Translations under genes and position numbers: made by a program
Notes under the pieces: model-generated
What the model was told of the DNA's origin: nothing
The model's database searches: none
What the model saw: the letters and a program-made list of their open reading frames with translations, nothing else
Part shown: positions 10,054 through 13,418 of the stretch, in pieces
How the letters are laid out: every line of letters starts with the position of its first letter
Numbering within the stretch: position 1 is the first letter of the stretch
Origin: Polynucleobacter sp. 73C-SIWE
GTDB lineage: Bacteria > Pseudomonadota > Gammaproteobacteria > Burkholderiales > Burkholderiaceae
NCBI RefSeq assembly: GCF_018882465.1
Contig: NZ_JACVOK010000001.1
Span: forward strand, 372,001 to 436,000
Reading direction: 5' to 3'
DNA: 64,000 nucleotides

Positions 10054-11583
10054 ATGTCTTATCGTGAACTAGTCTTCACGGTAGTTGCTGAAACAGCAGA
10101 ACCATTAGGTGATGCGCTACTGGAATTAGGCGCGCTATCTGTCACGGTAGAAGATGATGCGGCTGGTGGATACGATGAGAACCCGCTCTACGGAGAGCCT
10201 GGTCTATCCCCCGAAGTACAGGCCTGGGATAGATCCTCGGTAACCGCCCTCTTTAATCCCGATATTGATGCTTCAGCTAGTGCAAACTTTATCCCTGAAT
10301 TACTTGCCTCCCTAAAAGAGGCTGGCTTTAAGTTATCAGCTCCCCAGGAAAAAATCGTTGAAGAACAGGATTGGGTCAGACTTACCCAAAGCCAATTTGC
10401 TCCTATTCCCATTGGTAAACGAATTTGGGTTGTACCCTCTTGGCATGACGCTCCCACCGATCCAAATGCAATCTGCTTGGCTGTTGATCCAGGTTTAGCT
10501 TTTGGTACTGGTAGTCACCCCACTACCCATTTGTGTTTGTTATGGCTCGAAGAACATGGCAATCTAAATAAGCAAAGTTTGCTCGATTACGGTTGCGGCT
10601 CGGGCATTCTTGCCATTGCCGCTGCAAAACTTGGTTGCAATCCGGTTGTAGGAACCGATATCGACCCTCAAGCGATGGTTGCAGCACGTAGCAATGCACA
10701 AATCAATAACACCGTCATTCAGTTTGTTTTGCCTAATGAAGATGCGCCAGAACTTGCCGCAGAAACTAAATACGACATTGTGATGGCCAATATCTTGGCT
10801 AACCCGCTACAAGTATTGGCTCCAGCATTGGTTAACAAAATGCGTTCAGGCGGACAAATTGTTCTGTCTGGAGTACTTGCACGCCAAGCGGACGAAGTGA
10901 TTGCCACCTATAGTCAATGGCTCAAACTCTCTGTCTGGAAAGAAAATGATGGATGGGTTTGCTTGCACGGAACCCTATCAAAAGATAAGGACGTCAGCAA
11001 GACCACTCTTTTAGATACGCCTGCGCAAAAAAAAAGAGTTAAGTTAGCTCTACTAGGCTGCTTTTTTGTTCTGCTGCTGGTATTTGGTGAGCATCTGGCA
11101 AGAAATTCTTTGCTTCCCGCATTAGCACCTCGGGTTGATGGCACATCAAATGCTTTTTTAGTAAATTCATTTACTGTTTTGCAGAACTTTGATGAAAAAA
11201 TTTGTCGCGCGCTAGGCTGCGTAAACCGCCCTGTAAGCGATTTTGCTGCGTGGAAAATAACTTCAGCCGCCTTATCACCTGAAAACGCACGAGAGGGCCT
11301 TAAAAGCGGCGCAAATCAATCAATACTGCAAGTTGAAATACAAAATCGTCTTGCACTCTCTGTTTTAGCCCCAAATTTAGAAATTTCCCTCACCGATGCA
11401 GAAGAGGCTGAGATCAAATCTCTCCAATTCTCACCAAAAGAATGGTTACCTACTGCTTGGCAAGAGTCTCATCCTGATTTTTTGCGCATAGGTATCGCCT
11501 CAGGGGAGCAAATACAAACTTCATTAGCAATTCAATTGCCGCAGAATGCTGCAGGCTATCGAGTAAGAGTTGTTTACCCCTAA
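10054..11583 (+). CDS. prmA: PrmA ribosomal protein L11 methyltransferase fused to a membrane-anchored DUF3426 domain
   Basis: This is a 509-residue two-part protein. Residues 1 to about 308 are a full PrmA: AVDPGLAFGTGSHPTT near 143-158, the SAM-binding LLDYGCGSGILAIAAAKLG, and the N6-methyltransferase-type motif MANILANPL near 243. They trimethylate L11 in the cytosol. After a short polar linker, one membrane helix (LALLGCFFVLLLVFGEHLA, about 332-350) leads to a 160-residue domain with DUF3426 features. In related genomes I recall a separate zinc-ribbon/TM/DUF3426 gene directly after prmA; here the zinc ribbon is absent and the rest is in frame. The junction contains nine adenines (11027-11035). 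The methyltransferase call is firm; the functional meaning of the fusion is open. Confidence 0.88.
   Translation: MSYRELVFTVVAETAEPLGDALLELGALSVTVEDDAAGGYDENPLYGEPGLSPEVQAWDRSSVTALFNPDIDASASANFIPELLASLKEAGFKLSAPQEKIVEEQDWVRLTQSQFAPIPIGKRIWVVPSWHDAPTDPNAICLAVDPGLAFGTGSHPTTHLCLLWLEEHGNLNKQSLLDYGCGSGILAIAAAKLGCNPVVGTDIDPQAMVAARSNAQINNTVIQFVLPNEDAPELAAETKYDIVMANILANPLQVLAPALVNKMRSGGQIVLSGVLARQADEVIATYSQWLKLSVWKENDGWVCLHGTLSKDKDVSKTTLLDTPAQKKRVKLALLGCFFVLLLVFGEHLARNSLLPALAPRVDGTSNAFLVNSFTVLQNFDEKICRALGCVNRPVSDFAAWKITSAALSPENAREGLKSGANQSILQVEIQNRLALSVLAPNLEISLTDAEEAEIKSLQFSPKEWLPTAWQESHPDFLRIGIASGEQIQTSLAIQLPQNAAGYRVRVVYP
11027..11042 (+). other. A9 run at the PrmA/DUF3426 junction, phased as a slippery site with immediate out-of-frame stops
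   Basis: Zero-frame codons are CAA AAA AAA AGA GTT AAG. A -1 slip on A-AAA-AAA gives AAG AGT TAA, ending at 11042. Loss of one A gives GAG TTA AGT TAG. So every single-nucleotide change of frame stops within four codons, just beyond the methyltransferase domain. No strong downstream stem or upstream Shine-Dalgarno-like stimulator is evident. It could equally be a mutable homopolymer. Confidence 0.6.
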
Positions 11584-12630: not shown

Positions 12631-12661
12631 AATAAAAAAGGGGTCTCGTTAGAGACCCCTT
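12631..12661 (-). terminator. Rho-independent terminator of the histone-like gene (may work in both directions)
   Basis: A 10-bp perfect stem, AAGGGGTCTC / GAGACCCCTT, has a 4-nt loop (12638-12661). Read on the minus strand it is followed by TTTTTTATT, a strong terminator. On the plus strand it lacks a T-run but lies just after the kinase gene. It begins only about 19 nt beyond the -1-frame stop of the histone-like gene, but 144 nt beyond its zero-frame stop. Confidence 0.85.
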
Positions 12662-12679: not shown

Positions 12680-12808
12680 TTAAGGACGTGTGCCAGTTGG
12701 GAAGGGCCAAGCAGCGGCAGGGTTCAACGCACTAGTCGCTGATGCAGCTTTCTTAGCCGCGGGCTTTTTTACAGCAGAGCCCGCTTTCTTCGCAGCAGGC
12801 TTACTTAC
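12680..12808 (-). other. -1-frame C-terminal extension of the histone-like gene (42 codons)
   Basis: In the -1 frame the sequence runs on from the A9 tract as VSKPAAKKAGSAVKK, then PAAKKAASATSALNP and AAAWPFPTGTRP, with TAA at 12680-12682. It keeps the Lys/Pro/Ala repeat pattern and ends in an aromatic/proline tail, which a random frame would hardly do. It fills most of the space to the terminator. It is reachable by a -1 ribosomal slip, by RNA-polymerase slippage adding one A, or if one A is missing from this assembly. Confidence 0.8.
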
Positions 12809-12814
12809 TTTTTT
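12778..12814 (-). promoter_or_regulatory. Candidate programmed -1 frameshift signal: A-AAA-AAG heptamer, stop codon, 7-nt spacer and stem-loop
   Basis: On the minus strand the heptamer A-AAA-AAG occupies 12814-12808 in zero-frame phase, and the zero-frame stop TAA follows at once. After the 7-nt spacer TAAGTAA, GCCTGC (12800-12795) can pair with GCGGGC (12784-12779) across a 10-nt loop, with one G-U pair and an extra A-U at the base. A competing hairpin pairs GCGGGCT (12784-12778) with AGCCCGC (12765-12759). The heptamer is the one used in E. coli dnaX. No upstream Shine-Dalgarno-like stimulator is evident. Confidence 0.65.
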
Positions 12815-13086
12815 TTTGCTACGCGCTTTTTAGCAGCTGGACGCTTCTTAGCAGCTGGCTTCTTAGCAGCGGCTTTTTTAGCAGCTGGACGCTTCTTAGC
12901 AGCTGGACGCTTCTTAGCAGCTGGACGCTTCTTAGCAGCAGGCTTCTTAGCAGCAGCTTTTTTAGCAGCTGGGCGCTTCTTAGCAGCTGGCTTCTTCTTA
13001 GCTACTTTTTTAGCAGCTGGCTTCTTAGCGGCTACTTTTTTCTTAGCAGCTGGTTTCTTTGCAGCAGGTTTTTTCTTTGTTGCCAT
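12805..13086 (-). CDS. Lys/Ala/Pro-rich histone H1-like DNA-binding protein (zero-frame product)
   Basis: The zero-frame protein is 93 residues, built almost entirely of repeats of the form KKPAAKK and KRPAAKK. It resembles the C-terminal tail of eukaryotic histone H1 and the AlgP/HC1-type bacterial proteins. The high positive charge suggests non-specific nucleoid binding. A clear ribosome-binding site (AAGGAG, 13095-13100) lies 7 bp before the ATG. The zero frame ends in AAG TAA directly after nine adenines; the -1 frame continues for 42 codons of the same composition to 12680 (separate entry), giving a 135-residue product. The annotated end may therefore be incomplete. The family call is compositional, so partners and targets are unknown. 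Confidence 0.85.
   Translation of the reverse strand: MATKKKPAAKKPAAKKKVAAKKPAAKKVAKKKPAAKKRPAAKKAAAKKPAAKKRPAAKKRPAAKKRPAAKKAAAKKPAAKKRPAAKKRVAKKK
12820..13080 (-). repeat. Tandem degenerate repeats encoding PAAKK units
   Basis: Short near-identical blocks such as TTCTTAGCAGCTGG recur through the body of the histone-like gene, encoding the (K/R)KPAAKK pattern in phase. Such internal repeats tend to expand and contract between strains by recombination or slippage, so repeat number is a likely polymorphism. They are coding, not an intergenic array. Confidence 0.8.
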
Positions 13087-13418
13087 GTGTGTTACTCCTT
13101 CACGTGAGGATTAGTACAAACTACATTAAGAAGACCCGACCATCTAATTCCGCCTGGTTTTGCAACCTTTTGGAGCTGACGAGCGAGCCATTCATCGGCG
13201 CGCGGCTTGATGCTAAGTGCTGCACGCTAATGAATCCTGGAAAAAAAGCCGTGGCCCCAAAGGACAACGGCTTCTTAAATGTGCTGGAAAAAATAGAGAG
13301 GATAACCCAGGCACCCTTGAGCAAGGGTTTTCGGATTTGAGTCTGTTTTTGCTGACTTCTTAAACTATCCAACCGTCTAATCTCCAATTTGACCGGCTGT
13401 GCGCTTACTTACTACCAA
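13087..13418 (-). other. 332-bp gene-free interval between nrdB and the histone-like gene
   Basis: The interval holds a candidate nrdB terminator (13241-13273, listed separately) and a second small hairpin, ACCCTT-GAGC-AAGGGT at 13313-13328. It also holds the upstream region and ribosome-binding site of the histone-like gene. No convincing -35/-10 pair stands out. Open frames on both strands exist here but have no start-site support or protein character. Confidence 0.6.
13241..13273 (-). terminator. Putative rho-independent terminator of the nrdA-nrdB operon
   Basis: On the minus strand AAGCCGT (13273-13267) pairs with ACGGCTT (13252-13246) across a 14-nt loop that can itself form a small CC/GG pairing. 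It is followed by a run of seven T (13247-13241). It lies about 145 nt beyond the nrdB stop, leaving a long 3' untranslated region. Confidence 0.6.

What the first reader, a model, noticed from the sequence alone, without database searches (positions are those of the whole stretch)
12680..12830. Candidate programmed -1 frameshift in the histone H1-like gene
Seen directly: the minus-strand zero frame ends AAA AAA AAG TAA. The heptamer A-AAA-AAG (12814-12808) is correctly phased, and the stop follows at once. The -1 frame continues for 42 codons with the same PAAKK composition and ends in an aromatic/proline tail at 12680, just before the terminator. Seven bases after the heptamer a 6-7 bp GC-rich stem (12800-12795 with 12784-12779) can form. 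Known: the same heptamer directs about half of dnaX translation into -1 in E. coli. Inference: two forms, 93 and 135 residues, would differ in C-terminal tail. A missing A in the assembly or transcriptional slippage explains the same data.
Basis: partly seen in the sequence, partly recalled or inferred. Interest (0 to 1): 0.85.

Follow-up and report, generated by a model that had tools for sequence, protein, structure and literature searches.

The report
Conserved frameshift site in bacterial histone gene
In the freshwater bacterium genus Polynucleobacter, a gene for a histone-like DNA-binding protein is interrupted by a stop codon right after a run of A's in most species examined, in a way that predicts that cells make a short and a long form of the protein from one gene.

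Summary
The minus-strand H1-like ORF ends AAA AAA AAG TAA, and its C-terminal tail lies in the -1 frame. In 142 of 173 same-genus loci (172 genomes; Polynucleobacter by named relatives) A_AAA_AAG sits in phase directly before a stop, with the tail in -1 (L143's tail is further broken). In other Burkholderiaceae genera with the tail it is mostly the in-frame end of a long ORF. In 138 of these genes no upstream A-run exceeds 7, while the site has 8-10. Sixteen loci keep an A10-A11 run at the equivalent place in frame; 15 scored have stops in both other frames: default long instead of default short. So this looks like a conserved recoding site giving two products. I favour ribosomal -1 frameshifting (heptamer kept where the run is shortened; one tRNA-Lys, UUU), but RNA polymerase slippage on A9 is nearly as likely (run length conserved beyond the heptamer; a second conserved A9 in the neighbouring prmA-DUF3426 ORF). 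Stem evidence is weak. No expression data were available. The kind of system is known; I found no report for this gene in the open library searched.

The parts
12805..13086 (-). Histone H1-like gene, zero frame (93 aa, lysine/alanine-rich PAAKK repeats), default short product
   Evidence: NCBIfam NF038053 hist_H1_lk_Burk E 1.2e-13 for the 135-aa recoded reading, 51.8 bits, below that model's curated cut-off of 80; Pfam HC2 below cut-off
13095..13100 (-). Shine-Dalgarno-like AAGGAG, 8 nt before the ATG
   Evidence: read directly
12809..12817 (-). A9 run
   Evidence: at the equivalent place a run of 8 or more in 140 of 142 frameshifted loci
12808..12814 (-). Slippery heptamer A_AAA_AAG in zero-frame phase
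   Evidence: directly before the stop in 142 of 142 frameshifted loci (these were defined by an A-run, G and a stop with the tail in -1)
12805..12807 (-). Zero-frame stop TAA, followed by GTAAG which puts a second TAA in the third frame
12680..12808 (-). -1 frame extension (42 codons and stop), ending LNPAAAWPFPTGTRP
   Evidence: matches in 169 of 186 genus genomes, 172; third-position changes are the largest class
12778..12801 (-).
12759..12784 (-). Competing stem S2: 12784-12778 with 12765-12759, shares the central arm GCGGGC
   Evidence: the double change in L050 keeps S2 and breaks S1
12634..12660 (-). Terminator-like inverted repeat AGGGGTCTC-TAAC-GAGACCCCT running into a T-run
   Evidence: read directly; no terminator scan was run
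11027..11035 (+). Second conserved A9 run, in frame, at the junction of PrmA and DUF3426 in ORF 10054-11583
   Evidence: related observation, not part of the H1 gene

Best explanation
The gene carries a programmed recoding site. Most readings end at the TAA and give the 93-residue H1-like protein. A fraction shift by -1 on the A-run and read on into the tail, giving a 135-residue protein with the C-terminus that is standard in relatives. I favour ribosomal -1 frameshifting: two tRNA-Lys(UUU) re-pair on A_AAA_AAG, and the stop directly behind it and a short GC-rich stem 6-7 nt downstream help, as in E. coli dnaX. RNA polymerase slippage on the A9 run probably adds to it and could be the main route. 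Shown by comparison: conservation of site, stop and tail. Inferred: that both products are made, the level, the machine that slips, and a role of the ratio in DNA packing. The confidence figure is for recoding as such; for the ribosome as the main slipping machine I hold about 0.5.
For: Same architecture in 142 of 173 same-genus loci (sorted). 138 of 140 scored loci end WPFPTG(T/S/A)RP; of the other two, one (L040) has a residue more and one has WPFPTVTRP. In the three tail-length classes compared (118 of 140 loci), third codon positions hold 53 of 99, 42 of 84 and 14 of 27 changes. The tail ORF lacks ATG, GTG and TTG in 28 of 140 loci and holds only GTG or TTG in the 112 others, so a separate start is not a general route. 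nrdB lies beside the gene in outgroup loci too, which supports orthology. On the nrdB tree the frameshifted state lies on both sides of the deepest split of the genus, and the in-frame no-run cases L165, L189, L348 and L349 are nested within it. For the ribosome: heptamer and stop are kept in nine A8 loci and in two loci with only A6 at the stop, L048 and L148; L148 also has an A10 run upstream. One tRNA-Lys, anticodon UUU, among 38 tRNAs.
Against: No expression data. Run length is conserved beyond what the heptamer needs: the codon before the three lysines is NNA in 129 of 138, though GCA is only 278 of 2117 Ala codons before Lys upstream; this also fits polymerase slippage. 21 other in-phase heptamers occur in 138 of the genes. 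No SD-like stimulator upstream in 140 of 140. Covariation of S1 and S2 does not exceed shuffles. Folding against synonymous random versions is only modestly lower: z from -2.1 to +0.3 in 17 of 18 loci tried, -3.5 and -1.0 in L148. Two loci (L008, L049) have lost one A and cannot reach the tail by a simple -1 shift, and L143 has an extra A that breaks its tail frame. 13 loci are a single in-frame gene without the arrangement, so the short form is dispensable there (L133 of these is judged at a contig edge). The CCC Pro codon of the S2 arm (116 of 140, against 0 of 1134 upstream) is weak support, because 129 more CCC lie elsewhere in the same tails.
Confidence: 0.85

Rival explanations
1. Programmed transcriptional slippage: RNA polymerase adds an A on the A9 template, so a fraction of mRNAs carries A10 and is read straight through into the tail. 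In the A10 class slippage does the opposite and makes short products.
For: Run of 8-10 A at the site in 140 of 142 loci while upstream runs never exceed 7 in 138 genes. NNA codon kept before the three lysines in 129 of 138. A10 class: 15 of 15 scored loci have GCA AAA AAA AAA and a stop in both other frames 3-4 codons on, and 0 of 9 other KKK there are AAA AAA AAA. A second A9, without an in-phase A_AAA_AAG in its usual context, is conserved in prmA-DUF3426. L008 and L049 (A8) keep the tail, which loss of one A could reach. Nine as the length where selection against slippage is evident in a large proportion of bacterial genomes is stated in PMC1088944 (abstract and passages seen).
Against: Nine loci have A8 through GCT and two have A6 at the stop, all with heptamer, stop and -1 tail kept. 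A downstream stem cannot act on a polymerase that has not yet made it (recalled), but the stem itself is not proved. The third Lys codon is AAG in 142 of 142, where AAA would lengthen the run; but that G is also the first base of the -1 Val codon.
Confidence: 0.38
2. Missing A in the assembly; the real gene is a plain 135-residue ORF.
For: The tail is the normal in-frame C-terminus in other genera. Single loci such as L008, L049 and L143 may be such errors.
Against: 142 of 173 loci agree, many from one-contig genomes, and in nine the run is A8 by a base substitution that keeps the frame. No in-frame A10 version occurs with the TAAGTAA context among the 172 loci scanned.
Confidence: 0.02
3. Relic: the frameshift is a tolerated or decaying mutation; only the short protein is made and matters, and the tail is a remnant.
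For: 13 loci show that the two-frame state can be dispensed with. L143's tail frame is broken. My loci were found by the tail, so genomes that lost it would be missed: 14 of 186 genus genomes gave no tail, among them G134 (99% complete) and G161 (92%); the other 12 are at most 87% complete.
Against: The tail is kept with third-position bias and the same ending in 138 of 140, which a remnant would not show over this many species.
Confidence: 0.06
4. The tail is a separate small protein started on its own, by reinitiation after the stop.
For: TTG or GTG codons exist in the tail frame in 112 of 140 loci.
Against: None of the three start codons in 28 of 140; as first start the commonest is a TTG 6 codons before the Trp (52 loci), in the Leu of LNPAAAW, and no ATG is seen.
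Confidence: 0.02

Closest known systems
E. coli dnaX -1 programmed ribosomal frameshifting (tau/gamma)
   Same: Same heptamer A_AAA_AAG in phase, single tRNA-Lys, possible downstream stem, two products with a common N-terminus. The heptamer, the sole tRNA-Lys and the 50% level were seen in passages of PMC5009743 and PMC3711429.
   Different: Here the shift lengthens the protein instead of shortening it, the stop is the next codon, and no SD-like stimulator is seen. This genome's dnaX ORF has no A6 run.
Thermus thermophilus dnaX transcriptional slippage on A9
   Same: A9 run, stop close by, two products (passages of PMC1088944 and PMC3711429). The in-frame A10 class is closest to this arrangement.
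   Different: In the main class the default frame gives the short form, and an in-phase A_AAA_AAG is present.
GeneTack and heptamer surveys of conserved frameshifts (PMC3711429, PMC4066793)
   Same: Conserved frame transition with A-rich heptamer; PMC4066793 says the GeneTack clusters lead to longer products (passage).
   Different: 'histone', 'nucleoid' and the name searched (Polynucleobacter in the first, Burkholderia in the second) do not occur in the held main texts. Their supplements were not readable here, so a listing there cannot be excluded.
NCBIfam NF038053 histone H1-like DNA-binding protein
   Same: The recoded 135-aa reading aligns to profile 56-195 of 195, the C-terminal end included.
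   Different: Score 51.8 is under the curated cut-off of 80; in other genera the gene is one frame, about 113-265 residues in the examples seen.

Membership tests
-1 programmed ribosomal frameshifting, dnaX type | Slippery X_XXY_YYZ heptamer in zero-frame phase, conserved | tested here: met
   A_AAA_AAG directly before the stop in 142 of 142 frameshifted loci, 142 of 173 in all
-1 programmed ribosomal frameshifting, dnaX type | Downstream stem or pseudoknot at about 5-9 nt (recalled) | tested here: inconclusive
   S1 core at 7 nt pairs in 96.2% of cells but covariation equals shuffles and it competes with S2; one double change for S1 (L112), one for S2 that breaks S1 (L050); pseudoknots not tested
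-1 programmed ribosomal frameshifting, dnaX type | Upstream Shine-Dalgarno-like stimulator | tested here: not met
   none of AGGAG, GGAG, AGGA, GAGG, AAGG about 5-18 nt upstream in 140 of 140; this element is not needed in all cases (recalled)
-1 programmed ribosomal frameshifting, dnaX type | Single tRNA-Lys(UUU) reading AAG | tested here: met
   own genome: 38 tRNA genes, one Lys, UUU. Pattern scan of 38 genus genomes: UUU in 36, additional CUU in 2 of these, no match in 2
-1 programmed ribosomal frameshifting, dnaX type | Both products made with unedited mRNA | not testable with these tools
   needs protein and cDNA data
Programmed transcriptional slippage | Homopolymer of about 9 or more, conserved | tested here: inconclusive
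   9 or more in 131 of 142, 8 in nine, 6 in two
Programmed transcriptional slippage | mRNAs with differing A number | not testable with these tools
   needs RNA reads
Histone H1-like DNA-binding protein NF038053 | Score over the curated cut-off | tested here: not met
   51.8 against 80 bits; Pfam HC2 32.8 against 40
Histone H1-like DNA-binding protein NF038053 | Shared gene neighbourhood and C-terminal tail with the genes of other genera | tested here: met
   nrdB found beside the tail in outgroup loci (150 of 170 loci in all); LNPAAAWPFPTG.RP ending in the 30 loci of other genera printed

The most novel reading that the evidence does not exclude
In this genus long A-runs act as ratio-setting elements. 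The H1-like gene keeps an A9 or A10 run so that two lengths of a DNA-packing protein are made, but the default flips between lineages: short in most, long in the A10 class. The neighbouring prmA-DUF3426 fusion uses a second conserved A9, mostly with near stops in the other frames, to release PrmA alone. Recoding by homopolymer would then be a shared strategy of the genus and not a one-gene curiosity.
Probability: 0.35. Interest if true: 0.75.

Novelty: new member of a known kind. Interest (0 to 1): 0.62.

Why it matters
If true, a bacterial chromatin protein would have its C-terminus set by recoding across most of a genus, with two frame states and several single-frame cases available as natural experiments. 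It gives a clean comparative test of ribosomal against polymerase slippage. A gene finder that reads one frame would report this protein without its conserved tail (inference).

Tried and rejected
Assembly error: rejected as the general cause (142 of 173 loci). Separate start for the tail: judged unlikely. tRNA-Lys(CUU) gain explaining the in-frame class: tested. CUU was seen in G144 (in-frame A10 class) but also in G015, which is frameshifted; of the other in-frame genomes scanned G156 and G119 gave no match and the rest showed UUU only, so I see no link. Covariation as proof of a stem: not achieved; a 4-bp base helix for S2 reached its score in 33 of 500 shuffles. dnaX as an internal comparator: no A6 run within the ORF. 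Papers: searches listed no report of this site that I recognised; subscription papers and supplements were not readable. Pseudoknots were considered by eye only. Structure prediction was not used because the protein is low-complexity.

Counting rules: one search scored 150 loci (122 at -1, 12 in frame, 2 at +1, 13 without a zero ORF by my filter, 1 without tail by my regex). One search scored 172 loci and gave 140 frameshifted. I then removed L260 (A10 class, its upstream frame broken) and added L095 and L143 (dropped by the filter) and L048 (missed by the regex because of F to S in the tail); one search recounts the 142. Counts 'of 140' (endings) still include L260. The stem alignments hold 90 of the 91 distinct site sequences (71 in A2, 9 in A3, 10 in A4; L260 left out). 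One search compared 118 of 140 tails. One search examined 50 loci of the prmA junction: 11 were not parsed, 39 were, and of these two (L377, L378) are wrong frames.

Full report
What is there. The minus-strand gene 13086-12805 is a lysine/alanine-rich H1-like protein of 93 residues that ends GTA GCA AAA AAA AAG TAA; the -1 frame runs on for 42 codons to a stop at 12680. The recoded reading aligns through to the last position of the NCBIfam model for a histone H1-like DNA-binding protein, though below its cut-off. In a family search 137 of 299 genomes matched the tail, 13 of 25 genera, own-genus genomes included. Outside the genus the listed matches mostly lie in open frames of 146-265 residues; the exceptions are G213 (123), G385 (99), G421 (95), G251 (80), G192 (74), and G322 and G310 (30 and 17, at the first bases of their contigs). 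The 30 loci of other genera printed end LNPAAAWPFPTG(S/T/N)RP.

How widespread. A 40-residue tail query found 169 of 186 genus genomes, and one search added three (G143, G144, G156). Many named contigs with the locus are Polynucleobacter, among them P. hirudinilacicola, P. yangtzensis, P. alcilacus and P. sphagniphilus; others of the 80 loci kept are unnamed MAGs or other genera. On the nrdB tree the sister of the window is L008, which by contig and coordinates is P. hirudinilacicola L174 (inference). I fetched 173 loci for 172 genomes and sorted them. 142 have A_AAA_AAG in phase directly before the stop with the tail in -1: 140 with AAA AAA AAG TAA, L048 with GCA AGA AAA AAG TAA, L148 with GCA AAA AAG TAG. 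L143, one of the 142, carries a further A in the tail that breaks its frame. Two (L008, L049) have lost one A. 13 are one in-frame gene without the arrangement (L086, L114, L131, L133, L134, L135, L139, L142, L144-L147, L149), L086 still with A9 and L114 with A7; L133 is cut by a contig edge. 16 have the long run in frame, A10 in 15 and A11 in L262; one of them, L260, has a broken upstream frame. Fourteen genomes gave no tail in either search: 12 are at most 87% complete, but G161 is 92% and G134 99%.

Signs of selection on the site. In 138 frameshifted genes, 1231 upstream A-runs of five or more are never longer than seven, while the site has nine in 130 of 142 loci, ten in one, eight in nine and six in two. 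KKK elsewhere is coded AAA AAA AAG in 0 of 429. The codon before the three lysines is NNA in 129 of 138, though among Ala codons before Lys upstream GCA is only 278 of 2117. Third codon positions of the -1 frame are the largest class of changes in the tails compared, which translation in that frame predicts. These loci share ancestry, so the counts are not independent events.

The opposite state. In 15 of 15 scored loci of the in-frame A10 class the site reads GCA AAA AAA AAA (G/A)TA GTT AAR, the other frames stop three to four codons later, and 0 of 9 other KKK in those genes are AAA AAA AAA. There the default would be the long form and slippage would give short ones. On the nrdB tree (103 rows, quick method, 33 of 100 inner branches under 80% support) the two-frame state lies on both sides of the deepest genus split and at least eight changes of state are needed; 12 of the 13 A10 rows form one clade, and L165, L189, L348 and L349 (in frame, no run of eight or more except L189, the P. 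sphagniphilus locus corresponding to L086) are scattered inside frameshifted clades, while L344-L347 group beside the A10 clade and L350. Because loci were found by the tail, this sample cannot show tail loss. The two-frame state has been kept over deep divergence although a one-base gain in the run would remove it (inference).

Mechanism. For the ribosome: exact retention of heptamer and stop where the run is shortened (nine A8, L048, L148); [quoted passage not shown] coli (passage of PMC5009743); one tRNA-Lys, UUU; and a GC-rich stem 6-7 nt downstream. For the polymerase: conservation of run length beyond the heptamer, the A10 class, the A8-deletion loci, and a second A9 nearby. The RNA structure evidence is mixed. 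L050 changes both sides of an S2 pair and breaks S1; L112 changes both sides of an S1 pair (A2); L109 and L116 have double changes in S2 (A4). RNAalifold predicts S2, not S1, on A2. In the small clade of A3 the consensus differs again. Energies against synonymous random versions gave z from -2.1 to +0.3 in 17 of 18 loci, and -3.5 and -1.0 by the two models in L148.

Second A9. The + strand ORF 10054-11583 is PrmA fused to DUF3426 (Pfam), with CAA AAA AAA AGA at the junction and stops within 4-6 codons in the other frames. One search found A9 in 28 of 28 parsed of 30 loci. One search, over 50 loci, parsed 39 and found a run of nine in 34 (three had six, two were misparsed), 30 of them in the context CAA AAA AAA AGN although the neighbouring residues vary; near stops in both other frames are usual but not universal (L373 and L415 are exceptions). 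Most of the 11 unparsed loci are from the more distant genomes, so the reach across the genus is not known. There is no expression evidence.

Literature. I saw search listings, and passages of PMC3711429, PMC1088944, PMC4066793, PMC9227772 and PMC5009743; only the first 300,000 characters of PMC5009743 are held. My terms found no passage on this gene. PMC9227772 discusses chlD frameshifting and names P. duraquae, a different gene. The rest on frameshifting is recalled.

Noticed in passing
window 11027-11035 (+), ORF 10054-11583: A9 run in frame at the PrmA-DUF3426 junction, present in 34 of 39 parsed genus loci (50 examined), mostly with near stops in the other frames: a possible second recoding site that would release PrmA alone.
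   Followed up: partly
L048 (G033): The A-run is interrupted (GCA AGA AAA AAG TAA) but the heptamer is intact. The tail has F to S, and the prmA match of the same genome is split with a TAG inside one piece, so this may be a decaying genome.
   Followed up: partly
L143: Tail frame broken by one extra A (A7 where its relatives have A6) downstream of an intact A9 site; sequencing error or real is not known.
   Followed up: no
L364: The dnaX ORF of the window's genome has no A6 or longer run, so it does not seem to use the dnaX heptamer.
   Followed up: no
L343 (G144) and G015:C4:215162-215181: tRNA-Lys with anticodon CUU in two genus genomes (G144 confirmed by ARAGORN; G015 by pattern only); the window's genome has UUU only.
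   Followed up: no
L222, L224, L208: H1-like genes outside the genus with A-runs of 9-10; frame use there was not examined.
   Followed up: no
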